39,550 nucleotides of DNA, taken from IMG/VR virus record IMGVR_UViG_3300026534_000115, positions 1-39,550 of that record; one strand, given 5' to 3'. Under the pieces are notes generated by a model that saw nothing but the letters and a program-made list of their open reading frames with translations, was not told where the DNA came from and made no database searches. The DNA comes from a virus. The position numbers and the translations under genes were made by a program. Shown here piece after piece: positions 4,101 through 31,370 of this stretch (positions are counted from its first letter, which is position 1; every line of letters starts with the position of its first letter).

Positions 4101-6188
4101 ATGAAGGAATGGTTCACGGCCCGCGAACTGGCCGGGTTGCCGGGGATGCCTGGGACGGAGCGTGGCGTGTTGAAGGCCGCCAAACGTGAAAACTGGCGCT
4201 CCCGCAAGCGCCCCAAAGGCAAAGGGCGTGAATACCACATTCAAAGCCTCCCCGAAACCACCCGCACCCATCTGGCCCTGCAATGCCTGCCCCAGCCGGT
4301 GGCGGTGGAGGAAACCAGGGAGGCCGCCCTCGAGGCCCGCCGCCGGCGCAAGGAACAAGGTCTGGCCCAGTTCAACGCGCTGCCTTCCGGCCACCCCAAG
4401 CGCCTGCGGGCCAAGGCGCGGCAGTGGGTCCTGCAAGCCTGCGACGCTTTCCAGCAGCAGGCCGGGATGCCGGGGCGGCGCGGGGTGGAGTTGTTCTGCC
4501 AGGCGCTGATTTCCGGCGAGGTCACCATTCCAGAGCCCCACCGGCTATGGCTGCCCCAGCGCCACGGCGTCTCCAGCCTGGACGCGGCCACGATCTACCG
4601 CTGGCGCAAGCGGTTCGACGAGCAGGGCCTGTGGGGATTGACCGACGGCTACGGCAACCGCAAGGGGCAATCCATCATCGAACGCCACGAGCCTCTCAAG
4701 CGGCTGGTGATCGGGGCGATGCTCGACCAGCCTCACATCACCCCGGCCAAGCTCAAACAGTACATCGCCATCCGCCACCCCGAGCTGGATCTGGCCAGCG
4801 TCAAGTCCATCGAGCGCTACATGAAGCGCTGGCAGCAGGAAAACGCCCAAATATGGGAGTTCCTGACCCACCCGGATCGGTGGAAGAACGTGCGTATGGC
4901 GGCCTTCGGCAGCCACCACGAACACATCGAACGCCTGAATCAGCTTTGGGAGATGGACTCCACCCCCGCCGACTGGATGCTCAAAGACGGCCGCCACGTG
5001 GTGGTCGGCGTCATCGACCTGTATTCCCGCCGGCTCAAGTTCCGGGTTTCCAAGACCTCCAAGGCCGAGGCGGTGTGCCTGGCCTTCCGGGATGCGGTGC
5101 TGGCCTGGGGCGTGCCGGAGGCGGTGCGCACCGACAACGGGATGGAATACGTTTCCGAACGCTTCGCGGGGCTCCTGCGCGACCTGGACATCGAGCAGAT
5201 CCTCTGCCTGCCCTTCGCCTCGGAGCAGAAGGGCACCATCGAGCGCCACATGCGCACGATGAGCCACGGCATCCTGGATCTTCTGCCCGGCTTCATCGGC
5301 CACAACGTGTCCGATCGAAAGCGCATCGAAGCCAGGAAATCATTTGCCGAACGCGTCATGAATCCGGACGAAGTCATCGAGGCCGAGCTGGAAGCCAAGG
5401 ATCTGCAGAAGATTCTCGACGACTGGTGCGAATACGTCTACGGCCGCAGCCCCCACCAGGGCCTCGACGGCCGCAGCCCCTGGGACGTGGCCGCCAGCTA
5501 CACCGGCCCCATCCGCCGCATCGAAGACGAACGGGCCCTCGATTGCCTGCTGATGGAACCGGCCGGCACCCGAACCATCGGGAAAAAGGGCATCCGCTAC
5601 GAGCACTACGACTACATCGCCCCGGAGCTGGCCCCGCGCATCGGCGAGACCGTCTCCTTGCGCCTGGACCCGGACGACGCCGGCACCCTGTACGTCTACA
5701 GCCTGGACGGCGAGTTCCTTTGCAAGGCGAAGGCCCCGGAGCTGACCGGCATCTCCCGCGCCGAGATCGCCGCCGCCGCCCACGCCGAGCAGAAGGCGTT
5801 CACGAAGCGGCAGAGCCGGGAATACAGCGCCTTCAAGCGCGAGATCAAGGAAAACCTGGCCGAGGTGGTCCTCCGCCACGCCATCGAACAGGGAGAGAAC
5901 GTCACCGTGCTGCCGAAACCGGCCGAAACGCACACCACCCCGGCGCTGGAACAGGCCGGCCAGGCCGCCCGCGCGGAAACCACCGCCCCGGCCCGGGTGG
6001 TTTCCATGAGCGACGATCCCGGCGAACGGTACGAATACTGGGTGCGCATCGGCCGGCGCATCGAACGGGGCGAACGGGTGAGCGAGCAGGAACGGCGGGG
6101 CTGGGAGGCGTACCGGAACAGCCCTGACTACAAGGCGATGAAACGGCTTTACGAGGATTTCGGCCCCGGCGTGGCCGAGGCCGAATAG
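4101..6188 (+). CDS. A: Mu-type DDE transposase A
   Basis: The 695-residue protein matches MuA in plan. An N-terminal Mu DNA-binding winged helix (residues 1-60, MKEWFTARELAGLPG) is followed by end-binding HTH domains (about 75-245), an RNase H-like integrase core and a C-terminal beta-barrel (about 450-560). The catalytic residues are Asp286 (LWEMDSTPADW), Asp345 (VRTDNGMEYV) and Glu381 (EQKGTIERHM). Only 35 residues separate the last two, against 55 in Mu. The last 60 residues are helical and basic, where MuA contacts MuB and ClpX. It catalyses insertion and replicative transposition. GGAGG sits 9 bases before the ATG. Confidence 0.97.
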   Translation: MKEWFTARELAGLPGMPGTERGVLKAAKRENWRSRKRPKGKGREYHIQSLPETTRTHLALQCLPQPVAVEETREAALEARRRRKEQGLAQFNALPSGHPKRLRAKARQWVLQACDAFQQQAGMPGRRGVELFCQALISGEVTIPEPHRLWLPQRHGVSSLDAATIYRWRKRFDEQGLWGLTDGYGNRKGQSIIERHEPLKRLVIGAMLDQPHITPAKLKQYIAIRHPELDLASVKSIERYMKRWQQENAQIWEFLTHPDRWKNVRMAAFGSHHEHIERLNQLWEMDSTPADWMLKDGRHVVVGVIDLYSRRLKFRVSKTSKAEAVCLAFRDAVLAWGVPEAVRTDNGMEYVSERFAGLLRDLDIEQILCLPFASEQKGTIERHMRTMSHGILDLLPGFIGHNVSDRKRIEARKSFAERVMNPDEVIEAELEAKDLQKILDDWCEYVYGRSPHQGLDGRSPWDVAASYTGPIRRIEDERALDCLLMEPAGTRTIGKKGIRYEHYDYIAPELAPRIGETVSLRLDPDDAGTLYVYSLDGEFLCKAKAPELTGISRAEIAAAAHAEQKAFTKRQSREYSAFKREIKENLAEVVLRHAIEQGENVTVLPKPAETHTTPALEQAGQAARAETTAPARVVSMSDDPGERYEYWVRIGRRIERGERVSEQERRGWEAYRNSPDYKAMKRLYEDFGPGVAEAE

Positions 6189-6225: not shown

Positions 6226-6981
6226 ATGAACGAGAATGCAAACGTCATCAATTTCGATTCGATGCCGCAATCGGGCACCGCCATGCTGCGCAACGTGCGC
6301 CTGTGCGCGGTGCTGCTGGAACGGGCCATCGAGCGCCCCGCCCACCTGCCCGGCATGGTCTGTTTCTATGGCCCGTCGGGCTGGGGCAAATCGTTCTCGG
6401 CCGCCTACTGCGCCAACAAGCACCGTGCCTACTACGTCGAGTGCAAAAGCTCCTGGACCAAGAAGGCCCTTCTGGGGGCGATCCTCAACGAGATGGGTCT
6501 GCCCCAGACCGGCACGTTGTACGAGATGACCGACCAGATCGCCGAGCAGCTGGTGCTGTCCCAGCGCCCGCTCATCATCGACGAGATGGACCACATCGTC
6601 GAGAAGAAGGCGGTCGAGATCATCCGCGACATCTACGAAGGCAGTAACGCCCCGATCCTGATGATCGGCGAGGAAATGCTGCCGGCGAAACTCCGCCGCT
6701 GGGAGCGCTTCCACAACCGCATGCTCGCCTGGCAACCGGCCCAGCCCGCAGACCTCAACGATGCCCGCCAGTTGGCCCGGATCTACTGCCACAAGGTCCA
6801 GGTGGCCGACGACCTGCTGGAACTGTTCGTCCAGGCCACCCGCGGCTGCACCCGTCGGGTGTGCGTCAACCTCTACCAGGCCGAAACCCTGGGGATTTCC
6901 CTGGGGCTCGACAAGGTGGACCTGAAGACCTGGGGCGATCGGCCCATCTACACCGGCGACGCGCCGAAAAGGAGGGTCTGA
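6226..6981 (+). CDS. B: MuB-like AAA+ ATPase, transposition target activator
   Basis: A 251-residue AAA+ ATPase. Walker A is GPSGWGKS (residues 49-56) and Walker B is LIIDEMD with Asp119-Glu120. A sensor/arginine region follows (GEEMLPAKLRRWERFHNR), then a C-terminal helical domain. In Mu, B polymerises on target DNA, activates the A transpososome and gives target immunity. It lacks the long N-terminal HTH region of MuB (312 residues), as in the shorter B proteins of B3-like phages. It follows A by 37 bases and shares TGATG with the next gene. Confidence 0.95.
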   Translation: MNENANVINFDSMPQSGTAMLRNVRLCAVLLERAIERPAHLPGMVCFYGPSGWGKSFSAAYCANKHRAYYVECKSSWTKKALLGAILNEMGLPQTGTLYEMTDQIAEQLVLSQRPLIIDEMDHIVEKKAVEIIRDIYEGSNAPILMIGEEMLPAKLRRWERFHNRMLAWQPAQPADLNDARQLARIYCHKVQVADDLLELFVQATRGCTRRVCVNLYQAETLGISLGLDKVDLKTWGDRPIYTGDAPKRRV

Positions 6982-12002: not shown

Positions 12003-12068
12003 GCGTTACACCGCCTGAAAACCGGGCTTCAGCCCAGTTTCAAGCCGCCCCTTCGGGGGTGGTTTTCC
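12003..12068 (-). repeat. 66-nt dispersed repeat, copy 1 (with terminator-like hairpins)
   Basis: Read on the minus strand, this segment aligns without gaps to 21009-21074 on the plus strand at 53 of 66 positions. It encodes the last codons (KTTPEGAA, stop) of the leftward gene and continues past it. It contains two hairpins: CCGCCCC-TTCG-GGGGTGG (12045-12062) followed by TTTT in the plus direction, and AACCGGGCT/AGCCCAGTT. It probably ends transcription from both sides. Confidence 0.65.
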
Positions 12069-13134
12069 CATCGTAATATGCCACGATGCCCTTGATCTGA
12101 TCGGCGAATTTGTATATCTCGCTCAGATCCGCAATCGGGTGCCTGGTTTCCTTTCTGTCGTCGCCGTCTGGCTCGAAGGTTCCCAGGTATTTCTGGGCGC
12201 GGTTGAAATGCAGTCGGCAAATGGGCTTGCGATTGTTGTCGTCCAGCAAAATGCCACAGTAAGATTTTCGATCCCGCATCGCCACGCGAGCCGGGTCGAT
12301 GGACTCGCGCAGGATAGCTCGGACGATATAGAAGCCTTCCAGCTCTTCCTCAGTCGTTACAATTTCATCTTGTTCGTTGTCGTTTTCCTCGCTGTGATCC
12401 GAGCTTGCTTCGATGGGATCCGTTGCGACCAAGGCGGACTTAAGACGCTCATTGATTTTCTCGTTGATGAACTGGTTGACAGCTCTCTGTACGATCGTGG
12501 AGAACTGCTCCTTGACCGCCTGAGTAATGGGCTTGGTATACACCCGCTTTACCAAAAACCGAATGAACTCGTCTGAAGGCGATGAGACTTCTTTTGCCAG
12601 AACCCGCTTTATCTCTCTGGTGTACTTCAGGTCGCTAGCAGCATTTACCGCAGATTCCAAGTCAAATCCGGATTTGGTGAATTTTTTGATCTCAGGGATC
12701 AGGGTCTCGTCTACCTCCAGAATGTTGAATTCCAGAAATGGGCGCTCATCCATCTTGTTGGGTTCATCTAGATCAGTGAAAAACCTGTAGGTGACACCGT
12801 TTGTCAGAATGCCGATCCGAGCTCTGGTGACACTGAAGTATCGATAAAGCTGGGAAGCATGTATTTCATCTAGGTTGGTTTTGCAACTTTTGCACTCGAT
12901 CAACATTATCGGTTCACCGTCTTGTGTAATGGCATAATCGACCTTTTCACCCTTTTTGATGCCTACATCGGCGTTAAATTCCGGAATGACCTCCATCGGA
13001 TTGAAGATGTCGTATCCAAGCAACTGGATGAATGGTAGGATGAATGCCGTTTTTGTCGCCTCTTCCGTTTCTATAGCCGGTAACTGTTTCTGGATTTTAG
13101 CCGCAAGCGATTGAATCTGATCGATCAAATCCAT
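12040..13134 (-). CDS. HsdR N-terminal-like PD-(D/E)XK protein (accessory)
   Basis: The 364-residue protein resembles the stand-alone family related to the N-terminal nuclease domain of type I restriction subunit HsdR. The nuclease core is at residues 20-120: acidic residues 22-25 in an N-terminal helix, Asp66 (EKVDYAI), Glu80-x-Lys82 (MLIECKSCK) and QLYRYF (95-100). There is no helicase part. The C-terminal half ends in a beta-rich domain (YCGILLDDNNRKPICRLHFN) after an acidic linker. AAGGAGG lies 8 bases before the start. It is leftward, AT-richer and flanked by a dispersed repeat, so it is phage cargo. A role in restriction or superinfection exclusion is possible but unproven. Confidence 0.8.
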   Translation of the reverse strand: MDLIDQIQSLAAKIQKQLPAIETEEATKTAFILPFIQLLGYDIFNPMEVIPEFNADVGIKKGEKVDYAITQDGEPIMLIECKSCKTNLDEIHASQLYRYFSVTRARIGILTNGVTYRFFTDLDEPNKMDERPFLEFNILEVDETLIPEIKKFTKSGFDLESAVNAASDLKYTREIKRVLAKEVSSPSDEFIRFLVKRVYTKPITQAVKEQFSTIVQRAVNQFINEKINERLKSALVATDPIEASSDHSEENDNEQDEIVTTEEELEGFYIVRAILRESIDPARVAMRDRKSYCGILLDDNNRKPICRLHFNRAQKYLGTFEPDGDDRKETRHPIADLSEIYKFADQIKGIVAYYDGKTTPEGAA

Positions 13135-15546: not shown

Positions 15547-16873
15547 CCCGGTCCTGCTGCCGTACCAGCGCAGCTACCTCAAAGACGCCAGCCGGTTCAA
15601 GGCGGGCATGTGGTCGCGTCAGACCGGCAAAACCTTTACCACCACCCTGGAGGCGGTCATCGACGTCCTCGAGGCCGAGGCCGCCGGAAAGCAGCGCCGC
15701 TGGACCATTCTCTCGGTATCGCGCGACCGGGCGCTAGATGCGATGGAAAACGGCGTGAAACTGCATCTACGCGCCTTTCAAGCCGCCTTCGAAAGCCTCG
15801 ACGTGCCGCTGGAGGCCGACGAGCTGGCGCACCTGGTCCGGCTGCCGGGCGGCTCCTATATCCGTGCCGTCGCTTCCAAGCCCGCCACCGCCCGCGGCAT
15901 GAGCGACAACCTGATCCTGGACGAATTCGCCCATCATCAGGACAACCGCGCCATCTGGACCGCCCTGTTCCCGGTGATCTCTCGCCGCGATCTGAAGCTG
16001 CGGGTGATCTCGACGCCAAACGGCAAGGGGGACAAGTTCTACGAAATCATGACCGATCCGGATTCGCCGTTCTCGCGCCACGTGGTCACCATCTACGATG
16101 CGGTGGCCGACGGCCTCGACCGCGACATCGAGGAGCTTCGGCGCGGCATCGGCGATCCGGTCGCCTGGCGGCAGGAGTTCTGCTGCGAGTTCATCGACGA
16201 GGCGTCCGCCTGGCTCCCCTACGATCTGATCGACGCCTGCGAGGAACCGAACGCGGGCGACCCGGTGCGCTACGGCGGCGGCCCGTGTTACGTCGGCATG
16301 GACATCGCCGCCCGCGGCGACCTGACCGTCATCGCGGTCCTGGAGGACACCGGCGGCCGCCTGTGGTGCCGGGAGCTCGTCGAGATGCGCGGCGCTCCGT
16401 TCGCCGAGCAATTGGCGGCCCTCGACCGGGTGATGCGTGACTACCGCGTGGTGCGTTGCGCCATGGACCAGACCGGCATGGGGGAGATGCCGGTCGAGGA
16501 AGCCAGGCGCCGCCACGGCCAATACCGCATCGAGGGCGTGCTGCTCACCGCCTCCCGCAAGCTCGATCTGGCCACCTGTCTCAAGGAAGCGATGGAGGAC
16601 CGCCGCCTGGCGATTCCGCCGTCCCAGGATCTGCGCACCGATCTGCACGCGGTTCAGCGGGTGCCCGGCGCCACCGGTGCCCCGCGCCTGGTGGCCGAGC
16701 GCGGCCCGGCCGGCCACGCCGACCGCTTTTGGGCCCTGGCGCTGGCGGTTTCCGCCGCCGCCACCGGTCACGAGCGCTTCGGCTATGTGCCGGTCCGGCT
16801 CCGCCGCGCGCCGGACGACGACCCGACGCCGCGCCCCGTGCGCGTGACCGCCGGATTCAAGGGAGGACTGTAA
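15536..16873 (+). CDS. Large terminase subunit (Mu gp28-like)
   Basis: The 445-residue protein has the packaging ATPase and nuclease of Mu gp28. Walker A is SRQTGKT (27-33), Walker B is NLILDEFAHH with Asp129-Glu130, and the coupling motif is VISTPNGKG. The RNase H-like nuclease starts at VGMDIAARGDLTVIAVLED (Asp near 256). Further acidic residues follow in AMDQTGMGEMPVEEA and GHADRFWALAL. It powers headful packaging that starts at the left phage end. The start at ATG 15536 lies inside the small terminase gene. Confidence 0.95.
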   Translation: MAPDPVLLPYQRSYLKDASRFKAGMWSRQTGKTFTTTLEAVIDVLEAEAAGKQRRWTILSVSRDRALDAMENGVKLHLRAFQAAFESLDVPLEADELAHLVRLPGGSYIRAVASKPATARGMSDNLILDEFAHHQDNRAIWTALFPVISRRDLKLRVISTPNGKGDKFYEIMTDPDSPFSRHVVTIYDAVADGLDRDIEELRRGIGDPVAWRQEFCCEFIDEASAWLPYDLIDACEEPNAGDPVRYGGGPCYVGMDIAARGDLTVIAVLEDTGGRLWCRELVEMRGAPFAEQLAALDRVMRDYRVVRCAMDQTGMGEMPVEEARRRHGQYRIEGVLLTASRKLDLATCLKEAMEDRRLAIPPSQDLRTDLHAVQRVPGATGAPRLVAERGPAGHADRFWALALAVSAAATGHERFGYVPVRLRRAPDDDPTPRPVRVTAGFKGGL

Positions 16874-18420
16874 TGCCGCCGATCAAAACGACCATGCCCA
16901 GAGGGCTGCGCCAGCAGGATCTCAAACGCGAAATCGCCGGCCCCGGCCTGACCGGCATCCGCCAGGCATGGAACGCCGCCACCGTGGCCGCGGGCCTGAC
17001 CCCGGCGCGTCTGGCGCGGATACTGCGCGGGGCCGACGCCGGCGACCTGCACGACTATCTGACCCTGGCCGAGGAGATGGAGGAGCGCGACCCCCATTAC
17101 GCCGCGGTGCTGGGGGTGCGCAAGCGGGCCGTGCTGGGACTGGCGCCGGTGGTGGAGGCTGCCACCGACGCCGCCCGCGATATCGAGATCGCCGACGCGG
17201 TGCGCGAGCTGACGGCCGATCCAGGTTTCGTCGAGCTGTGCGCCGACCTGCTCGACGCCCTGGGCAAGGGATTCGCCGTGTGCGAGATCGTCTGGACCAC
17301 CGGCAGGCGCTGGGTTCCGGCAGAATACCACTGGCGCGATCCCCGGTGGTTCCGGTTCGACCCGGTCGACGGCCGCACCCTGCGCCTGCTCGACGAACGG
17401 TCCCCGGACGGCCTGCCGCTGCCGCCCTACAAGTTCGCCGTCCACGTCCCCAGGCTCAAGTCGGGCCTGCCGATCCGCGGCGGGCTGGCCCGGCTGGCCT
17501 CGGCCGCCTTGATGTGCAAGTCCTACACCGTGGCCGACTGGATGGCCTTCGCCGAGGTGTTCGGCATGCCCCTGCGTCTGGGGCGCTACGGGCCCGGGGC
17601 CAGCGAGGCCGACATCGAGACCCTGGTGCGGGCGGTGGCCAACCTGGGGCACGACGCCGCCGCCGTCCTGCCGGACTCGATGCGCATCGAATTCCAGGAG
17701 GCCGGGCAGGGAGCCGGCGGCCACGAGCTGTTCCTGCGCCTGGCCGAATGGCTCGACCGCCAGATCTCCAAGGCGGTGCTGGGCCAGACCATGACCGCCG
17801 ATTCCGGTTCATCCTACGCCCAGGCCAAGGTCCACGACGAGGTGCGCGCCGACATCCTGGAGGCCGACGCCCGCCAGCTGGCCGCCACCCTGCAGCGCGA
17901 CCTGGTGATTCCGTTCGTCGATCTCAACTTCGGCCCCCAGCCGGTTTATCCGCGCCTGACCCTGCCGGTGCGCGAGCCGGAGGACATCACCGCCCTGGCC
18001 GACGCCCTGGCCAAACTGGTGCCGTTGGGGAACCTGGGCATCCAGGCGTCGGTGGTGCGCGACCGGCTCGGCTTCCCGGACCCGGAGGACGGCGCCGACC
18101 TGCTGGGCCAACCCGCCGCCCCGGCCCTCCAGCGCGCCGCCAACCGGCAGAGTGCGGCGGCCGCCCACCCGGCCGCCGTCATGGCCGACACCCTGGCAGG
18201 CCAGGCCGACGCCGAAATCGCCCGAATGCTCGACCGGATCCGCGTCATGCTCGACCAGGCCGGCGACCTGGAACAGTTCAAGGAAATGCTCCTGGCCGCC
18301 TACGGGGATCTGGATTCTGGCGGTTTGGTCGAGGCCATTGGGCAGGCGATGACCGCGTCCCACCTGGCCGGCCGCTACGATCTGGCCAAGGGCTCGGGGC
18401 TCCTCGATGGCGAGAATTGA
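16873..18420 (+). CDS. Portal protein (DUF935, Mu gp29-like)
   Basis: The 515-residue protein matches the DUF935 portal family: the opening segment after residue 35, EEMEERDPHYAAVLGVRKRA, the VCEIVWTTGRRWVP block, and the late VLGQTMTADSGSSYAQAKVH motif. It forms the dodecameric ring at the head vertex through which DNA enters and leaves. The C-terminal 110 residues are helical and Ala-rich. The ATG overlaps the TAA of the terminase gene (TAATG), and it overlaps gpF by 14 bases. Confidence 0.95.
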   Translation: MPPIKTTMPRGLRQQDLKREIAGPGLTGIRQAWNAATVAAGLTPARLARILRGADAGDLHDYLTLAEEMEERDPHYAAVLGVRKRAVLGLAPVVEAATDAARDIEIADAVRELTADPGFVELCADLLDALGKGFAVCEIVWTTGRRWVPAEYHWRDPRWFRFDPVDGRTLRLLDERSPDGLPLPPYKFAVHVPRLKSGLPIRGGLARLASAALMCKSYTVADWMAFAEVFGMPLRLGRYGPGASEADIETLVRAVANLGHDAAAVLPDSMRIEFQEAGQGAGGHELFLRLAEWLDRQISKAVLGQTMTADSGSSYAQAKVHDEVRADILEADARQLAATLQRDLVIPFVDLNFGPQPVYPRLTLPVREPEDITALADALAKLVPLGNLGIQASVVRDRLGFPDPEDGADLLGQPAAPALQRAANRQSAAAAHPAAVMADTLAGQADAEIARMLDRIRVMLDQAGDLEQFKEMLLAAYGDLDSGGLVEAIGQAMTASHLAGRYDLAKGSGLLDGEN

Positions 18421-19606
18421 GGTCAGCCCCGACGGGGCCAGCATCGAAAACGCCCGCCTGCCCTTCACCGAGCAGATCGCCTTCTTCCGCGGCAAGCTGG
18501 GCAATCTGATTCCCACGCGAAGGTGGGACGACATCCAGAAGTCCGCCCACGACAAAAGTTTCATGGTCGCCGGGGCGATGAAGGCGGACCTTTTGGCCGA
18601 CCTGGCCCAGGCTGTCGATCGGGCCGTCGCCGACGGCAAATCCATCCAGTGGTTCCGGGAAAATTTCTTCGAGATCGTCGCCAGGCACGGCTGGACCGGC
18701 TACACCGGCGCCGATACCAAAAAGGGCCGGGCCTGGCGTACCCGGGTGATCTACCAGACCAACCTGCTCACCAGTTACAACGCCGGGCGGCTGGCGCAAC
18801 TGAAAGAGGGCGGATTCAAATACTGGATCTACCACCACGACGACTCGGTGCGCCATCCAAGGCCCTTGCACCAGGCTTGGGACGGGCTGAGCCTGCCGGC
18901 AAGTCACGACTTCTGGAAAACCCATTACCCGCCCAACGGCTGGGGCTGCCAATGCTACCTCTCCGGCGCCCGCTCGGAACGCGGCGCCAGAAGGCTCGGC
19001 GGCGACCCGGACAAACCGATCGACCCCGAGTGGCTCAAGACCGACCCCAAGACCGGGGCGCCGGTGGGCATCGACAAGGGCTGGGACTATATGCCTGGGG
19101 CGACGGTGGTCGATACGGTGCGGGCGCTGCGGGACAAGCTCGACCGGTTGCCGCCGCGGCCCGCTATCGCTGTCATTCAGGATTGGCTGGGGACAGAGGC
19201 GTTCGCCGCCTGGCTCGACAACCCGCAAGGCAACTGGCCCCTGGTCCGGCTGCCCGACGAGGATGCCGGGCGCATCGGGGCGCAGACGACGGTGGCCGAC
19301 CTGTCGCCGGAGACGGCGGCCAAGCAGAAACGCGAGCACCCGGAGCTGACGCCGGAAGAATACCTCCTGGCTCAGCGGGTGATCGATGGGCCAGATTACA
19401 AGCAGGTCGAGAAGAATCCAAAAACCGGCACCCAAAGTCTGGTTTACATCCAGGTTATCGACGGCAACGACAGTGGTGGTTACGTGCTGGTGGTCAAAGC
19501 CACCAAGAGCGGGAAGGGATTGTTCGTGACCAGCTACCGTCGCCTGTCCCGGCAGGAAGCGGAGCGTGACCGAGAAATCCAGCGGATTTTGCGGCGACGC
19601 AAATAA
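18407..19606 (+). CDS. F: Head morphogenesis protein gpF with C-terminal nuclease-like domain
   Basis: The 399-residue protein has the Mu gp30/SPP1 gp7 minor head domain in residues 20-200: RTRVIYQTNLLTSYNAGR, the YHHDDSVRHPRPLH block and HYPPNGWGCQC. It is present in few copies near the portal. After a linker, residues about 310-399 (HPELTPEEYL, LVYIQVIDGND, VLVVKATKSGKGLFVTSYRR) look like the Barnase-EndoU-ColicinE5/D-RelE-like domain (PBECR2) that is fused to gpF in many phages. Enzyme activity in this copy is not established. Confidence 0.93.
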   Translation: MARIEVSPDGASIENARLPFTEQIAFFRGKLGNLIPTRRWDDIQKSAHDKSFMVAGAMKADLLADLAQAVDRAVADGKSIQWFRENFFEIVARHGWTGYTGADTKKGRAWRTRVIYQTNLLTSYNAGRLAQLKEGGFKYWIYHHDDSVRHPRPLHQAWDGLSLPASHDFWKTHYPPNGWGCQCYLSGARSERGARRLGGDPDKPIDPEWLKTDPKTGAPVGIDKGWDYMPGATVVDTVRALRDKLDRLPPRPAIAVIQDWLGTEAFAAWLDNPQGNWPLVRLPDEDAGRIGAQTTVADLSPETAAKQKREHPELTPEEYLLAQRVIDGPDYKQVEKNPKTGTQSLVYIQVIDGNDSGGYVLVVKATKSGKGLFVTSYRRLSRQEAERDREIQRILRRRK

Positions 19607-25840: not shown

Positions 25841-25972
25841 ATGCGACAAGGCGGCAGTTACCGCATCGAGAAGAAGGGGCAGAAACCTAAGCTGATCGAA
25901 CGCACCAGGCCGGTGCCGGATCAGGCCAAGCCCCGATCGCAATCCAACCCCAAAACTGACGGAGGCAAGTGA
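25841..25972 (+). CDS. 43-residue basic protein before the tail tube gene
   Basis: ATG 25841 follows GGAGCGACCC and opens a 43-codon frame ending in TGA, whose last base starts the next ATG. The peptide is basic, Pro/Gln-rich and probably disordered (SYRIEKKGQKPKLIERTRPV). Tiny genes of this kind are seen at the same place in B3-like phages. The tight packing supports it being real. Its function is unknown. Confidence 0.65.
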   Translation: MRQGGSYRIEKKGQKPKLIERTRPVPDQAKPRSQSNPKTDGGK

Positions 25973-26922
25973 TGGCCCTGCTGGCGAGAAAGAAGATCCT
26001 GCTGGCCAAGATCGAGGCCACCTACGGCACCGACGCCGCCCCCGCCGGGGCCGACGCGGTGCTGGTCTCGGAACTCAACCTCTCGCCCCTGGAGGCCCAA
26101 ACGGTGCAGCGGAACAACATCCGCCCCTACCTGGGTCGCGACCTGGAGATCCACGTGGGCGAGCACGTCAAGGTCGATTTCCAGGTGGAAGTGGCCGGCT
26201 CCGGCACCTCGGGCGCATCGATCACCGCCCCGGCCTGGGGCAAGCTGATGCGCGGCTGCGGGTTCGCCGAGACGGTGGACACCGCCACCGCCGGCAGCGA
26301 GCACGTGCGCTACGAGCCGGTCTCGTCCGGCTTCGAGTCCCTGACGCTGTATTTCAACCTGGACGGCCAGCTCCACAAGATCACCGGGGCCCGGGGCACG
26401 GTGAAGGTGAACCTGGGGGTCAACCAGATCCCCCACTTCCAGTTCGAGTTCACCGGCCTGTACAACGGGCCGACGGCCACCCCGGCGGTCACCCCGAATT
26501 TCTCCGCCTTCCAGACGCCCGAGCCGGCCGGGCCCGGCAAGACCTCCGGCTTCAGCTTCCAGGGTTATGCCGGGATTCCCATTTCGGTGGAAATCGACCT
26601 GGCCAACGATGTGGTCTATCACCAGACCCTCACCACCCAGGAAGTGCTCATCACCGACCGCAAGACCTCCGGCCAGCTCACCATCGAGGCCCCCAGCGTG
26701 GCCACCAAGGATTTCTGGGCCGACACCCTGGCCAACACCGCCGGGGCGTTCGCCATCCAGCAGGGGCAGACCGCCGGCAACATCGTCCTCTTCGAGGCTC
26801 CACGGGTTCAGGCGCTCCAGCCCAAGTACGGCGAGGCCGACGGCATCGCCACCCTGGAGATGGGGCTGGCCTTCGTGCCCACCGACGCCGGTGACGACGA
26901 GCTGACGATCAGGCTGATTTAA
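25972..26922 (+). CDS. Major tail tube protein
   Basis: The 316-residue protein has the tail tube style of B3/D3112-type siphoviruses. An N-terminal arm (LARKKILLAKIEATYGTDAA) is followed by the long beta-rich body (VGEHVKVDFQVEVAGSGTSG, VNLGVNQIPHFQFEFTGLYN, ITDRKTSGQLTIEAPSVATK). It stacks to form the hollow tube. No sheath gene is present nearby, so the tail is non-contractile. ATG 25972 is preferred over GTG 25969 because GGAGG is 6 bases upstream. Confidence 0.88.
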   Translation: MALLARKKILLAKIEATYGTDAAPAGADAVLVSELNLSPLEAQTVQRNNIRPYLGRDLEIHVGEHVKVDFQVEVAGSGTSGASITAPAWGKLMRGCGFAETVDTATAGSEHVRYEPVSSGFESLTLYFNLDGQLHKITGARGTVKVNLGVNQIPHFQFEFTGLYNGPTATPAVTPNFSAFQTPEPAGPGKTSGFSFQGYAGIPISVEIDLANDVVYHQTLTTQEVLITDRKTSGQLTIEAPSVATKDFWADTLANTAGAFAIQQGQTAGNIVLFEAPRVQALQPKYGEADGIATLEMGLAFVPTDAGDDELTIRLI

Positions 26923-26933
26923 GGGGGGGATGA

Positions 26934-27239
26934 ATGGGCTTCAAAATCGCCTCGCTTCAGGATCTGACCTTCAAGCACCCGGTCAAGATCGCCGGATCGG
27001 AGATCGAGTGCGAATTCCGGGTTCTCGACGACGACAGTCTGGCGAAACTGGCCGAGCGCGGCGACACCCCGTTCATTCAGGCGGTGCTGAAAAGTTGGGA
27101 TGGGGTGGAGGACGACGACGGCAGCCCCGCGCCGTGCGGTCCGGCGCAGATCGCCGCCCTGTGCCGATACGCCATCGCCCGTCAGGCGATTCTCAAGGCG
27201 TACTGGCAGGGGCTGCAACAGGCCGCCGAGGGAAACTGA
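26934..27239 (+). CDS. Tail assembly chaperone, short form (lambda gpG analogue)
   Basis: A 101-residue protein following the tail tube gene: FKIASLQDLTFKHPVKIAGS, a beta-rich start, then helices (CGPAQIAALCRYAIARQAIL). It ends at TGA 27237 directly behind a GGGAAAC slippery site. This is the short partner of the chaperone pair that coats the tape measure before tube assembly. GGGGGGG-type Shine-Dalgarno precedes ATG 26934. Confidence 0.85.
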   Translation: MGFKIASLQDLTFKHPVKIAGSEIECEFRVLDDDSLAKLAERGDTPFIQAVLKSWDGVEDDDGSPAPCGPAQIAALCRYAIARQAILKAYWQGLQQAAEGN

Positions 27240-27556
27240 GGCAGGCCGTCCGCCACCTGATCGCGGGCGGCCGCGGCGACGAGCTGATCGAAGACGCCCG
27301 CGCCCTGGGGGCGCCCGAGTCGGTCCTGGCCGAGCTGCGCCGCCGGGCCACCTTCGCCTTGTGGCCCCGGAACGTCAGAATCCTGGAAGCCTTCGTGCTC
27401 GTGGCCGGTCAGTGGCGCCGGGACGGTAGGGGTCGGATCGTGGCGTTGGACTACGCCGCGGTCGAGGCGGGGCTCAGGATGGCCGGGATCGCCGTGGACC
27501 GGGAACTGTTCGAGGGTTTGAGAATCTGCGAGCGGGAGGTGCTGGCGCATGGCTGA
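26934..27556 (+). CDS. Tail assembly chaperone, frameshifted long form (gpGT analogue)
   Basis: A -1 slip at 27230-27236 joins the 101 codons of the short form to the next frame, which starts at 27236 and stops at 27556. The product has about 207 residues. The extension (LRQAVRHLIAGGRGDELIED, RRATFALWPRNVRILEAFVL) lacks its own good start. In lambda and most siphoviruses the long form binds the tape measure through this T domain. It overlaps the tape measure gene by 8 bases. The -1 frame happens to be open all the way from 26930, so a separate upstream start cannot be ruled out. Confidence 0.82.
27230..27272 (+). promoter_or_regulatory. Programmed -1 ribosomal frameshift signal
   Basis: The heptamer G GGA AAC (27230-27236, zero frame GAG GGA AAC) has the X XXY YYZ form and is followed at once by TGA. 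After a 7-base spacer, GGCCGTCCGC (27244-27253) pairs with GCGGGCGGCC (27263-27272) in a 10-bp stem with one G-T pair and a 9-base loop. All elements of a bacterial -1 frameshift site are present. Confidence 0.85.
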
Positions 27557-30500
27557 AATGGAATTGCGGCTGCGGCTGACGGCCACCGACCAGGGGCTGA
27601 AAGCCCAGGTCGTCGACGCCCAAGGTAAGCTCCGTGACCTTGGCCAAAGCGGCGAGCGCGCCGGCGGCCGGGTCGCCGGCGGCATGAGGCGGGCCGGCGC
27701 CGGGGTCGAGCGTCTGGCCCGGTCGATCGATTCGGTCAAGCGGCTGCTGATCGGATTCGCCTCGATCCAGTTCGCCCGGGGATTGGTCGGGCAGCTGAGC
27801 GCGACCGCCGATTCCGCCGCCAACCTGGCCGCCCGTATCCGCCTGGTCACCGATTCACAGGCCGAGTTCAATCAGGTCCAGGACGAGCTGTTCCGGATCG
27901 CCCAGCGCACCCGCGCCCCCCTCGAGGCCACCGCCGATCTCTACGCCCGCATGGGGCCGGCGCTGAAACGGATCACCGGCTCCACCGGCGAGGCGCTGCG
28001 GGTGGTCGAGACCATCAACCAGGCCCTGGCCACCTCCGGGGCGACCGCCGCCGAGTCGTCCGGGGCCCTGCTGCAACTGTCCCAGGCCCTGGCCGCCGGC
28101 GCCCTGCGCGGCGACGAGTTCAATTCGGTGATGGAGGGGGCTCCCGGCATCATGCGGGCCATCGCCGACGGCCTGGGCGTGCCCATCGGCAAGCTGCGCG
28201 AGCTGGCCAACGCGGGCAAATTGACCGCCGAGGTGGTGGTCGGCGCGCTGCAAAAATCGCGCGATTCGGTGCAACGGGCGTTTTCCGAAATGCCGCTCAC
28301 CATCGGCGGGGCGCTGCAACAGGTGGAAAACCGCTGGCTCCAGCTCATCGGCCGGATGGACAGCGCCTCGGGGGTCAGCCGCCAGGTGGCCGAGGCCATC
28401 GCCTCGGCGGCCGACTACATGGACGAGGCTCTGGCGGCGGTGGTGTTCACCGCCAACGCGGTCACCGGGGCGATCCGCGGCATCGCCGGCACCGCCAGCA
28501 TGGTGATCGGCGGGGTGCTGGATCTGCTCGACACCCTGACCCTGGGGCTGTCCGACACCCTGGGGAATCTGGTCGAATCGTTCCGGGCCGCCGCCGAGGT
28601 CAATTTCAAGGGACTGGCCCAGGACATCGACGACGCCAACGCCGCCTTCCGCCAGCTGACCGGCGCCACGGACGCCGCCTCGGTCGCCGCCGGCCGGGCG
28701 GGCGAACAGGTGGCCCGCATCGAAGACCGGGTGCGGTCCGCCTCGGCCACCGCCGCCGCCTCCGATCTGCTGCCCCAGGTGGATACTGCCAAGCTGGCCG
28801 AATTCGAGGCTGGCCTGCGGCGCCAGGCCGTGGCCCTCGAGCGCCTACGGGACGCCGCCCTGGCGGGGCAGGAGCCGCTCCGGGCGCTGCAGGTTTTGCA
28901 GCAGACCGACAACGACCTGCGCCGGACCGGCATCGACCTGACCTCGAGCCAGGCGGCCGCCTACCGCGCCGTCGCCCTGGCCCTGCAGCAGAACCGGGAC
29001 GCCCTCCAGCAGACCGCCGGATTGGTCGAGCGGGAAAACGCCGCCTACCGCACCCGGCTGGCCAATCTGAAGGCGTTTTACGACGCCGGCCTGATCGACC
29101 AGAAAACCTATCACAGCCAGGCCGAGCAGGCGGCCCGGGCCCACCAGAAGCGCCTGGCGCAAATCGAGCGGCAGGGCGCCGCCCTCCGCAAGGAGAACGA
29201 ACGCTACGCCCAGCGCCTGGCCCTGATCGAGGCCGCCTACCGACGCGAAGAGCTGAGCGCCGCCGAGCACCAGCGCCGCCTCGAGGCCCTGGAAGCCGAG
29301 CACCAGCAGCGCCTCGCCGCGATCCACGCCCAATACCGCCAGGCGGATCAGGCCGCCTACCAGCAGTACCTGGCCGGTCTCATCGCCCAGGCGGAACAGG
29401 CGTATCAGACGCGCCTGCAGGCGTTGAAGCTGGCCCTGGACCAGGGGCTGGTGAGCGAGGCCGAATACCGCCGCCAGGTGGAGGAACTGGAACAGCGCCA
29501 CGCCGCCAACCTGGCCCAGATCCGCCAAAACGCCCTGCAGCAATACCTGCAGCAGCTCGACCGCCAGGCCCAGGCCGCCGAACAGGCCGCCGGCATCCGC
29601 CGCCAGGCAGCCGAGGAAACCGCCAGGGCCGAGGTCGAGGCGGCGGTCCAGGCCGGCCAGGGGGTGTCCGACGCCGCCCGGCAGGCGGCCGACAACGTCC
29701 AGCAGGCGTTCGCCCGCGCCGCCGAGGGGGCCGGTCAAGCGCTGGTCTCCATCGCCCAGACGGCGGAAAACGCCTTCGCCCAGGTGCAGGTGAACGTGGG
29801 ACAGGCGGTCGCCGCCGTGCAGACCGGCTTGCAGTCGGTTGCCGGGCAACAGAATACCGGTAATCCGGTGTTCTCCGATAGCGTATATCAGTGGTTGGCC
29901 AAGGCCAACCCGATCGGTCAGGTGATCTCCGGTTCGTTCCGCCTGCCGGACGGGACGCAACTGGCGACCGACCCAAGCCAGCTGATGTTCGGCGGCGAAC
30001 AGGCGATTTTGCGGTGGTTGAACCAGTTCAATGCGCTGAACGATCGCCCGATGCAAGGCGGTCTCTGGCCGGGCGGTCCCGGCTGGGACCTGTTGCAGCA
30101 ATACCTGCACAAACCGCTGCCGGTATCGGTCATTTCCGGGGGCAAGACCGTCGGGGAGGTGAGCCTGACCAGCGCCGAAATCGAACGGCTGCTGGAATAC
30201 AACGACGCCCTGGACCGGGCGAAGAAGCTGCAACAGGAGATCGACCGGGCCGCGAAAAAATACCCGTCCGATATCGCCGACAAGATCCGCGCCAATCTGC
30301 AGACGCAGCTCGATGCGCTGATCGCCAAGTTTCCCGACATCAAAAAAGCGCTGCAAGACAGTCTGGGTGAGATCAAGCTGCCAAAAATCGAATTACCGAA
30401 GATCGAGCTGCCGAAGATCGAGTTGCCCAAGATCGACCCAACCGCGCCTGCCGCCCCAACAAGCCCGGCGCCGGTGATCCGGCCGGGGGCGCCGGTGAGG

Positions 30501-31370
30501 CCGCCGCCGTCTCCGAAGCCGCCGCCCACGCCCACGCCCCCAACGCCGGCGCCGGTGATCCGGCCCCACCGGCCGACGTTCATTGAGCGCCCGGACGGGT
30601 CGGTGGTGCGGCTCGACGACGCGCCGGACAAAGAACGGCTGAAGAAGGCCGAAAAGGACTATCTGGCGTATCTGAAAAAGCTGGAGGACCTGCGCCGCGG
30701 CAGCCTGATCGACCGGCGGCGGCGGGAGACCCGGGACGAACGGAAACGCCTGGATGACAGCGAGCGCCGCTATGACGACCATCTGCGCCGCCGCGCCGAC
30801 CGCTGGCGGGCGCTGCACGACGATATGACCGCCGTCGGCCGGCGCGCCGCCGCCGACTATCTGGACGCCTGGGCGGCGACCCTGGATGCATTGTTGCAGC
30901 AGGCGGGCGATTTCGCCACAACGCTGCCGCAACCGGAAACGCCTGTGTCCGGGGCGGAGACGCCGGCGCCGGAATCCGACCGTCCGCCCGCGCCGGTCGC
31001 TCCAATCCGTCCAACCCCGCCCATTCGTCCCATCTATTTCTCCGCCGCCGGGCTGCCGCGTTATCATTCCGGCGGCGTCGCCGGCCTGAAACCGGACGAG
31101 GTGCCGGCCATCCTCCAGAAGGGCGAGCTGATCCTGACGCCGCAGCAGGCCCGGATGCTGGCCCCGGCCGGCCGCACCCGGGTCGAGGTGCACGTCCACA
31201 ACCACGCCGGAGTCGCCGTCGAAACCCGGGAAACCGCCACCGCCGCCGGCACCCGCATCGACATTGATCTGCTGGCCGAACAGATCGAGGACCGCATCGG
31301 CCGCCGCCTGGCGGAAGGGCGCGGTCTGGCCCGGGCCCGGTCGCCCTACGACCTGGGGGCGTTCTCGTGA
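27549..31370 (+). CDS. Tape measure protein
   Basis: At 1273 residues this is the longest gene of the window. An N-terminal tape-measure domain (about 70-260, LYARMGPALKRITGSTGEAL, GDEFNSVMEGAPGIMRAIAD) is followed by hydrophobic helices near 295-345 that may enter the host membrane, and a very long coiled coil (about 420-760). Then come a Pro-rich hinge with four LPKIE repeats and PPTPTPPTPAPVIRP (about 943-1010). The C-terminus has the usual FSAAGLPRYHSGGVAGL block. It sets tail length and is ejected with the DNA. Confidence 0.95.
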   Translation: MAEMELRLRLTATDQGLKAQVVDAQGKLRDLGQSGERAGGRVAGGMRRAGAGVERLARSIDSVKRLLIGFASIQFARGLVGQLSATADSAANLAARIRLVTDSQAEFNQVQDELFRIAQRTRAPLEATADLYARMGPALKRITGSTGEALRVVETINQALATSGATAAESSGALLQLSQALAAGALRGDEFNSVMEGAPGIMRAIADGLGVPIGKLRELANAGKLTAEVVVGALQKSRDSVQRAFSEMPLTIGGALQQVENRWLQLIGRMDSASGVSRQVAEAIASAADYMDEALAAVVFTANAVTGAIRGIAGTASMVIGGVLDLLDTLTLGLSDTLGNLVESFRAAAEVNFKGLAQDIDDANAAFRQLTGATDAASVAAGRAGEQVARIEDRVRSASATAAASDLLPQVDTAKLAEFEAGLRRQAVALERLRDAALAGQEPLRALQVLQQTDNDLRRTGIDLTSSQAAAYRAVALALQQNRDALQQTAGLVERENAAYRTRLANLKAFYDAGLIDQKTYHSQAEQAARAHQKRLAQIERQGAALRKENERYAQRLALIEAAYRREELSAAEHQRRLEALEAEHQQRLAAIHAQYRQADQAAYQQYLAGLIAQAEQAYQTRLQALKLALDQGLVSEAEYRRQVEELEQRHAANLAQIRQNALQQYLQQLDRQAQAAEQAAGIRRQAAEETARAEVEAAVQAGQGVSDAARQAADNVQQAFARAAEGAGQALVSIAQTAENAFAQVQVNVGQAVAAVQTGLQSVAGQQNTGNPVFSDSVYQWLAKANPIGQVISGSFRLPDGTQLATDPSQLMFGGEQAILRWLNQFNALNDRPMQGGLWPGGPGWDLLQQYLHKPLPVSVISGGKTVGEVSLTSAEIERLLEYNDALDRAKKLQQEIDRAAKKYPSDIADKIRANLQTQLDALIAKFPDIKKALQDSLGEIKLPKIELPKIELPKIELPKIDPTAPAAPTSPAPVIRPGAPVRPPPSPKPPPTPTPPTPAPVIRPHRPTFIERPDGSVVRLDDAPDKERLKKAEKDYLAYLKKLEDLRRGSLIDRRRRETRDERKRLDDSERRYDDHLRRRADRWRALHDDMTAVGRRAAADYLDAWAATLDALLQQAGDFATTLPQPETPVSGAETPAPESDRPPAPVAPIRPTPPIRPIYFSAAGLPRYHSGGVAGLKPDEVPAILQKGELILTPQQARMLAPAGRTRVEVHVHNHAGVAVETRETATAAGTRIDIDLLAEQIEDRIGRRLAEGRGLARARSPYDLGAFS
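30375..30434 (+). repeat. Four tandem 15-bp repeats in the tape measure gene
   Basis: Four in-frame units, beginning with AAGCTGCCAAAAATC and varying at synonymous positions, encode [K/E]LPKI repeats. They lead into a Pro-rich segment. The drift at silent positions shows the repeat is old and kept at protein level. Confidence 0.75.

What the first reader, a model, noticed from the sequence alone, without database searches (positions are those of the whole stretch)
27230..27272. Complete -1 frameshift cassette in the tail chaperone pair
GGGAAAC, an immediate TGA, a 7-nt spacer and a 10-bp GC stem occur at the junction of the two chaperone frames. Lambda uses GGGAAAG in the same gene pair. Here the slip sits directly on the stop codon, so release-factor competition may set the ratio of short to long form. 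The -1 frame is open through the whole upstream gene, which could mislead automatic annotation into calling a separate 208-residue gene from 26930.
Basis: partly seen in the sequence, partly recalled or inferred. Interest (0 to 1): 0.6.

Follow-up and report, generated by a model that had tools for sequence, protein, structure and literature searches.

The report
Phage tail-chaperone frameshift on stop codon
A Mu-like prophage probably makes two versions of a tail-building helper protein because some ribosomes slip back one base just before a stop codon; this is a known trick, but in this protein family the slip site sitting right on the stop codon turns out to be kept by selection.

Summary
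GGGAAAC (27230-27236) ends flush against TGA (27237-27239), the stop of a Phage_TAC_4 tail chaperone (G, 26934-27239). The -1 frame continues as a DUF1799 protein (T, to 27556). A 10-bp stem lies 7 nt downstream. It is a programmed -1 frameshift site giving G (101 aa) and G-T (207 aa), the lambda G/GT arrangement.

Homologues settle it. In 60 DUF1799 loci, 59 have the G partner and 57 have a heptamer in register: AAAAAAC, GGGAAAC or (once) AAAAAAG. It is flush with the stop in 47 of 57 (40 of 49 non-redundant), against 3 of 17 heptamer-bearing lambda-type T loci. Synonymous codon choice shows that the adjacent stop itself is selected: the slip-site leucine makes an immediate stop in 40 of 47 cases, against 108 of 949 for other leucines. 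The stem region is more stable than synonymous shuffles, here and on average in the family.

Frameshifting itself is ordinary, and single phages with flush stops (KL1, Loki) are in print. I found no report of the family-wide selected stop in nine paper searches. Release-factor competition as its purpose is plausible, with a precedent in bacteria, but untested here.

The parts
26934..27239 (+). G, short tail assembly chaperone (frame 0), 101 aa + TGA
   Evidence: Phage_TAC_4 21.3 bits against a cut-off of 21.1, marginal; PHROG 569 E 1.1e-12; family G profile E 2.1e-21; GC3 0.82
27230..27236 (+). slippery heptamer G_GGA_AAC
   Evidence: sequence; heptamer in register in 57 of 59 loci with a G
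27237..27239 (+). frame-0 stop TGA flush with the heptamer
   Evidence: flush in 47 of 57 loci, 40 of 49 non-redundant; synonymous-codon test
27244..27272 (+). stem-loop, arms 27244-27253 and 27263-27272, 10 bp, 9-nt loop, 7 nt after the heptamer
   Evidence: 0.8% of synonymous shuffles as stable at 36 nt; family mean z about -0.8
27236..27556 (+). T, the -1-frame extension (DUF1799); G-T reads as join(26934..27236, 27236..27556), 207 aa
   Evidence: PF08809 E 1.6e-12; GC3 0.91; no ATG/GTG/TTG in the first 41 T codons after the heptamer's AAA
25969..26922 (+). tail tube protein upstream (Phage_tube_2), context
   Evidence: E 3.2e-16
27549..31370 (+). tape measure protein downstream (TMP_3), overlaps the end of T, context
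   Evidence: E 5.4e-66

Best explanation
It is a programmed -1 ribosomal frameshift site. Most ribosomes stop at TGA and make G. A minority re-pair at G_GGA_AAC onto GGG_AAA, miss the TGA and make G-T, helped by the stem just downstream. G and G-T then act as tail assembly chaperones on the neighbouring tape measure and tube proteins, as in lambda (inferred from family and gene order). Shown here: the coding frame switches at this point, and heptamer, register, stop adjacency and local structure are conserved or enriched. Inferred: that slippage happens and at what rate. Further inference, about 45%: the stop is flush because termination at the A-site stop competes with slippage and so holds the G-T share low and fixed.
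For: Homology: G is Phage_TAC_4-like and T is DUF1799, between tail tube and tape measure. Of 9 other family Gs scanned, 7 match Phage_TAC_4, several over its whole length. The coding signal changes frame at the slip: GC3 0.82 in frame 0 upstream, 0.44 in -1 upstream, 0.91 in -1 downstream. Of 60 DUF1799 loci (window included), 59 have G, always with T in the -1 register, and 57 have a heptamer in register. The heptamer ends in C in 48 of 49 non-redundant loci, although T there would keep both Asn and Leu (log10 P -9.4 from own-locus Asn usage). Stop adjacency: 40 of 47 slip-site leucines make a stop, against 108 of 949 other leucines; resampling own-locus leucine codons with the next base held gives mean 24.6, maximum 35 in 20000 trials. 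CTG is never followed by G at the site; before G it is CTA in 5 of 7 loci, against 5.3% CTA usage. Stop type changes at least 13 times on the tree among flush members. Structure: mean z -0.80 (p 0.0006) in the first 48 nt, no significant effect at four later offsets.
Against: No expression data. XXXAAAC is a poor class of slip site in E. coli assays (passages in PMC4066793 and PMC5009743). Two loci (L042, L060) have no heptamer; L060 may use A_AAG (inference). Four non-redundant loci have the heptamer 9-54 nt before the stop, and five are one sense codon off, so a flush stop is not indispensable. Lambda-type T loci use C-ending heptamers in 12 of 17 cases, and 8 of those 12 are far (21-60 nt) from the stop, so AAC does not need a flush stop. 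All three stops are used, with every +4 base represented overall, which argues against tuning to one release factor or to a weak stop context. The stem signal is absent in several members (for example L009, L061, L056).
Confidence: 0.93

Rival explanations
1. The stop adjacency has no role in slippage. G simply must end there, or the T residues after the slip happen to create a stop.
For: Off-stop members exist (9 of 49 non-redundant), and lambda-type pairs are mostly spaced 15-60 nt. T residue 4 often starts with A, so a stop comes easily.
Against: With the next base held fixed, synonymous leucine choice alone still makes far more stops than expected: 40, against a maximum of 35 in 20000 resamplings. 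Rare CTA is chosen when the next base is G.
Confidence: 0.35
2. The stop in the A site is a stimulator: slow termination pauses the ribosome and raises slippage (a shifty stop) instead of lowering it.
For: Stop codons promote +1 slippage in bacterial RF2 genes (passage in PMC5009743). A flush stop would give time for E/P-site slippage on a poor AAC site.
Against: In bacteria a stop after the HIV-1 site lowered frameshifting and extra RF2 abolished it (PMC4373837). +4 bases are not restricted to weak contexts: TGAT is 12 of 26 flush TGA sites (that TGAT is a strong context is recalled).
Confidence: 0.2
3. T is a separate gene with its own start, for example the 208-codon ORF from 26930 or an internal start.
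For: The -1 ORF is open from 26930, and the G-rich stretch before it could serve either ATG.
Against: The -1 frame upstream of the slip has GC3 0.44 and no PHROG match. It is closed within 20 codons of the slip in 19 of 49 family members. No ATG/GTG/TTG occurs in the first 41 T codons here, nor in the first 20 in 30 of 49.
Confidence: 0.03
4. The frame change comes from transcriptional slippage, or from a sequencing error or decayed gene.
For: Many homologues have six A in a row.
Against: GGGAAAC has no run longer than three. Heptamer type changes at least 8 times on the tree, nearly all AAAAAAC/GGGAAAC, which fits paired tRNA slippage. The same arrangement recurs in 57 loci.
Confidence: 0.02

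Closest known systems
Phage lambda G / G-T
   Same: Same place between tail tube and tape measure; -1 shift at GGGAAA-N; short chaperone and long fusion
   Different: Lambda uses GGGAAAG 15 nt before the stop and a different G family, Phage_TAC_2; here G is Phage_TAC_4 and T is DUF1799, and the slip is flush with the stop
Burkholderia phage KL1 gp18/gp19
   Same: GGGAAAC immediately upstream of TGA, stem-loop predicted downstream, tail chaperone pair (passage in PMC3483164; sequence)
   Different: KL1 has another tail gene between T and the tape measure (same passage); whether its T is DUF1799 was not tested
Acinetobacter phage Loki gp12/gp13
   Different: Other heptamer; prediction only, in one phage plus one relative
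Rhodobacter phage RC1 and Thiobacimonas phage vB_ThpS-P1
   Same: DUF1799-like T, GGGAAAC flush on TGA, 36-43% identity over T
   Different: Their records do not join the two frames
[quoted passage not shown]
   Same: Named in PMC4373837 as natural -1 sites with a stop right after the slippery sequence
   Different: Eukaryotic viruses, unrelated genes

Membership tests
Programmed -1 frameshift of phage tail assembly chaperones (G/G-T) | Two overlapping ORFs between tail tube and tape measure genes | tested here: met
Programmed -1 frameshift of phage tail assembly chaperones (G/G-T) | X_XXY_YYZ heptamer in register near the 3' end of G, T in the -1 frame | tested here: met
Programmed -1 frameshift of phage tail assembly chaperones (G/G-T) | Heptamer conserved among homologues | tested here: met
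   57 of 59 loci with a G; misses L042 and L060
Programmed -1 frameshift of phage tail assembly chaperones (G/G-T) | Downstream stimulatory structure (not universal) | tested here: met
   A stem is present; 0.3-1.1% of synonymous shuffles as stable at 36-60 nt, not unusual at 27-33 nt. Family mean z -0.80. That it stimulates was not tested
Programmed -1 frameshift of phage tail assembly chaperones (G/G-T) | Fusion protein made in measurable amount | not testable with these tools
   needs a reporter or mass spectrometry
Phage_TAC_4 (PF08748) | G scores over the curated cut-off | tested here: met
   21.3 bits against 21.1, marginal; 7 of 9 other family Gs match, 2 do not
DUF1799 (PF08809) | T scores over the curated cut-off | tested here: met
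   47.9 bits against 26
Lambda G/T protein families (Phage_TAC_2 / Phage_tail_T) | Sequence match | tested here: not met
   no match of the window proteins to either; own genome has no PF06223 match
RF-competition (stop-governed) frameshift | Stop codon directly after the shift site | tested here: met
RF-competition (stop-governed) frameshift | Frameshift rate responds to release-factor level | not testable with these tools
   experiment needed

The most novel reading that the evidence does not exclude
In the Phage_TAC_4/DUF1799 tail-chaperone family the stop codon is itself part of the frameshift signal. Ribosomes reach the stop with the slip site in the E and P sites, and release factor and -1 slippage compete, so termination kinetics set the short:long chaperone ratio. 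Selection keeps any stop (TGA, TAA or TAG) flush with a C-ending heptamer across widely diverged phages.
Probability: 0.4. Interest if true: 0.62.

Novelty: new member of a known kind. Interest (0 to 1): 0.4.

Why it matters
The site is an ordinary member of a well-known class, and individual flush-stop cases are already in print. The homologues add a clean natural data set. The stop next to the slip is held by synonymous codon choice while its identity changes repeatedly, and a few relatives have it one codon or more away. That makes an old mechanistic question (does termination compete with -1 slippage in natural bacterial cassettes, and why do phages use AAC-ending heptamers that are weak in E. 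coli assays?) directly testable. It also gives annotators a simple rule: GN* or KN* at the end of a Phage_TAC_4-type gene, with K-L opening the -1 frame.

Tried and rejected
Wide-window RNA fold (81 nt): no excess stability (z 0.05). Only the local segment stands out.
Separate T gene: rejected. Transcriptional slippage: unlikely, no long run in GGGAAAC.
Shine-Dalgarno-like stimulator upstream of the heptamer: 4-mers in 15 of 49 loci, not a family feature.
Idea that AAC heptamers require a flush stop: rejected, because lambda-type loci use AAC far from the stop in 8 of 12 cases.
Weak stop context as in RF2 genes: not seen.
Rfam: no family in the window.
Close relatives: only 1 of 101 genomes (its own) has a T-like match at E 0.001.
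Error made and mended: I took minus-strand genome loci as already turned round; they were not. The results for 18 loci in those calls are void. One search turned them and all counts use it. The G profile was built from 31 loci with flush heptamers, so it leans to them; but only 1 of 60 loci (L045, near a contig end) was lost for lack of a G. Counting rule: heptamers with AAA as second triplet, the one nearest the stop, within 90 nt; one search lists the unfiltered ones (one extra, in L047). L049 was admitted with a weak G match (E 0.0039). Named phages were my choice from listings of 167, 158 and 33 records. The tree is poorly resolved: 9 of 46 inner branches starred.

Full report
WHAT IS THERE. 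The window is a Mu-like prophage: MuA-type transposase at 4101-6188, an AAA ATPase in the MuB position, terminase and a Mu-like protease, followed by a siphovirus-type tail with a gpJ-like tip protein. Between the tail tube gene (25969-26922) and the tape measure gene (27549-31370) lie two overlapping frames. Frame 0, 26934-27239, is a 101-aa tail assembly chaperone (Phage_TAC_4 just over its cut-off; PHROG 569 E 1.1e-12). The -1 frame downstream is DUF1799 (47.9 bits against a cut-off of 26). At their junction GGGAAAC (27230-27236) is followed at once by TGA, and a 10-bp stem begins 7 nt after the heptamer.

IS IT MORE THAN CHANCE. Of 1167 other ORFs of at least 60 aa in the window and loci, 3 end in any XXXYYYZ flush with the stop and none in XXXAAAC. 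Coding signal switches frame at the slip: GC3 is 0.82 in frame 0 and 0.44 in the -1 frame before it, and 0.91 in the -1 frame after it. The stem segment is matched by 6 of 1778 windows of the region and 1 of 164 GC-matched ones. Against synonymous shuffles of T, 0.8% (36 nt), 1.1% (48 nt) and 0.3% (60 nt) are as stable; at 27 and 33 nt it is not unusual, 72% and 7%. An 81-nt fold including the slip is not unusual.

HOMOLOGUES. After correcting the orientation of minus-strand loci, 59 have a G by profile, always with T in the -1 register. In 57 a heptamer lies in register: AAAAAAC 29, GGGAAAC 27, AAAAAAG 1. Distance from heptamer to stop: 0 nt in 47, 3 nt in 6, and 9, 18, 27 and 54 nt once each. 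In 49 clusters at 70% T identity: 0 nt in 40, 3 nt in 5, others 4. Misses: L045 has no G; L042 (T match under the Pfam cut-off) and L060 (Serratia phage Scapp, record annotated as frameshifted) have no heptamer. L060 shows A_AAG three bases before its stop, which may be a tetramer site (inference).

THE STOP IS SELECTED. After the heptamer's AAA the -1 frame reads leucine in 47 of 49 non-redundant loci. The leucine codon and the next base decide whether frame 0 has a stop. At the site 40 of 47 make one; elsewhere in the same genes 108 of 949 leucines would. Holding the next base fixed and drawing leucine codons from each locus's own usage gives a mean of 24.6 and a maximum of 35 in 20000 trials, so this is not protein constraint alone. 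When the next base is G, only CTA (of the CTN codons) makes a stop, and CTA is used in 5 of 7 loci although it is 5.3% of leucine codons (binomial 8e-6). The heptamer's last base is doubly synonymous (AAC/AAT both Asn, CTR/TTR both Leu) and is C in 48 of 49. On a tree of G+T with the junction left out, stop type changes at least 13 times among flush members, heptamer type 8 times, and flush/off 7 times; the tree is poorly resolved.

CONTROL FAMILY. Lambda-type T (PF06223) loci, same register rule: of 20 loci 17 have a heptamer, 3 flush, 1 at 3 nt, 13 at 18-60 nt; lambda itself is at 15 nt. 40/49 against 3/17 has Fisher p 4e-6 (the control was not made non-redundant, and related loci are not independent). 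The PRFect paper gives average distances of 26 nt (SEA-PHAGES set) and 36 nt (Xu set) (passages, PMC10885494).

STRUCTURE. In 49 loci the 48 nt after the slip are more stable than synonymous shuffles (mean z -0.80, sem 0.21, p 0.0006), with no significant effect at four later offsets in T. 29 of 49 are in the most stable tenth of windows of their own G and T. Several members have no such signal, so the stem is common, not required.

MECHANISM. Shown: frame switch, conserved heptamer, selected adjacent stop, enriched local structure. Inferred: tandem slippage from GGA_AAC to GGG_AAA, giving 101-aa G and 207-aa G-T (sequence). Inferred from lambda (legend in PMC5009743): G binds the tape measure and T recruits the tube protein. 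The purpose of the flush stop is open. Passages in PMC4373837 report that in bacteria a stop placed right after the HIV-1 slip site lowered frameshifting and that extra RF2 abolished it, implying slippage with the stop in the A site. Against a fine-tuned system: all three stops and all +4 bases occur, and off-stop relatives exist. C-ending heptamers are poor shifters in E. coli assays (passages in PMC4066793; PMC5009743), which fits a low G-T share; but lambda-type loci use C-ending heptamers away from stops too (8 of 12).

NOVELTY. Tail-chaperone frameshifting is long known (Xu et al. 2004, seen only as a citation). GGGAAAC flush on TGA was described for phage KL1 (PMC3483164, passages) and AAAAAAC adjacent to the stop for Loki, with the same motif in IME_AB3 (PMC5313236, passages). 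The word DUF1799 occurs in one paper of the library, without frameshift. In the nine paper searches that ran I saw no statement that the flush stop is a selected, family-wide feature. The library lacks most subscription papers, so this is weak evidence of absence.

ANNOTATION. Of 18 named phage records opened with this pair, 2 join the frames (L050, L060); the others give T a later start, a separate overlapping gene or none. The part of the 208-residue ORF from 26930 that lies upstream of the slip is an artefact.

Noticed in passing
window 4101-6188 and 6226-6981: MuA-type transposase and an AAA ATPase in the MuB position: the prophage is Mu-like and probably transposable but carries a siphovirus-type tail.
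   Followed up: partly
window 12040-13134 (-): Opposite-strand gene with an HSDR_N domain and a strong match to PHROG 4225 endonuclease (E 2.9e-129), inside the phage.
   Followed up: partly
window 16968-18509: 513-aa ORF without Pfam or PHROG match; a 654-aa ORF in another frame (16456-18420) may be the real gene.
   Followed up: no
L060 1380-1395 (Serratia phage Scapp): Annotated frameshift in a relative without heptamer; GAA AAG TAT TAA suggests an A_AAG tetramer site instead (inference).
   Followed up: partly
L066-L085 (lambda-type T loci): C-ending heptamers (AAAAAAC) in 12 of 17 loci with a heptamer, the class reported as weak in E. coli; 3 of them are flush with the stop.
   Followed up: partly
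L010, L011 (Dhillonvirus records): T is unannotated or given only a short 3' ORF; the -1 frame is closed just before AAAAAAC-TAA, so frameshifting looks like the only route to a full T.
   Followed up: partly
L086 10990-12441 (-): Flank of the same contig carries a gene whose best relatives among 80 listed loci are mostly Methylococcaceae and kin at 72-81% identity; the host name is not known.
   Followed up: partly
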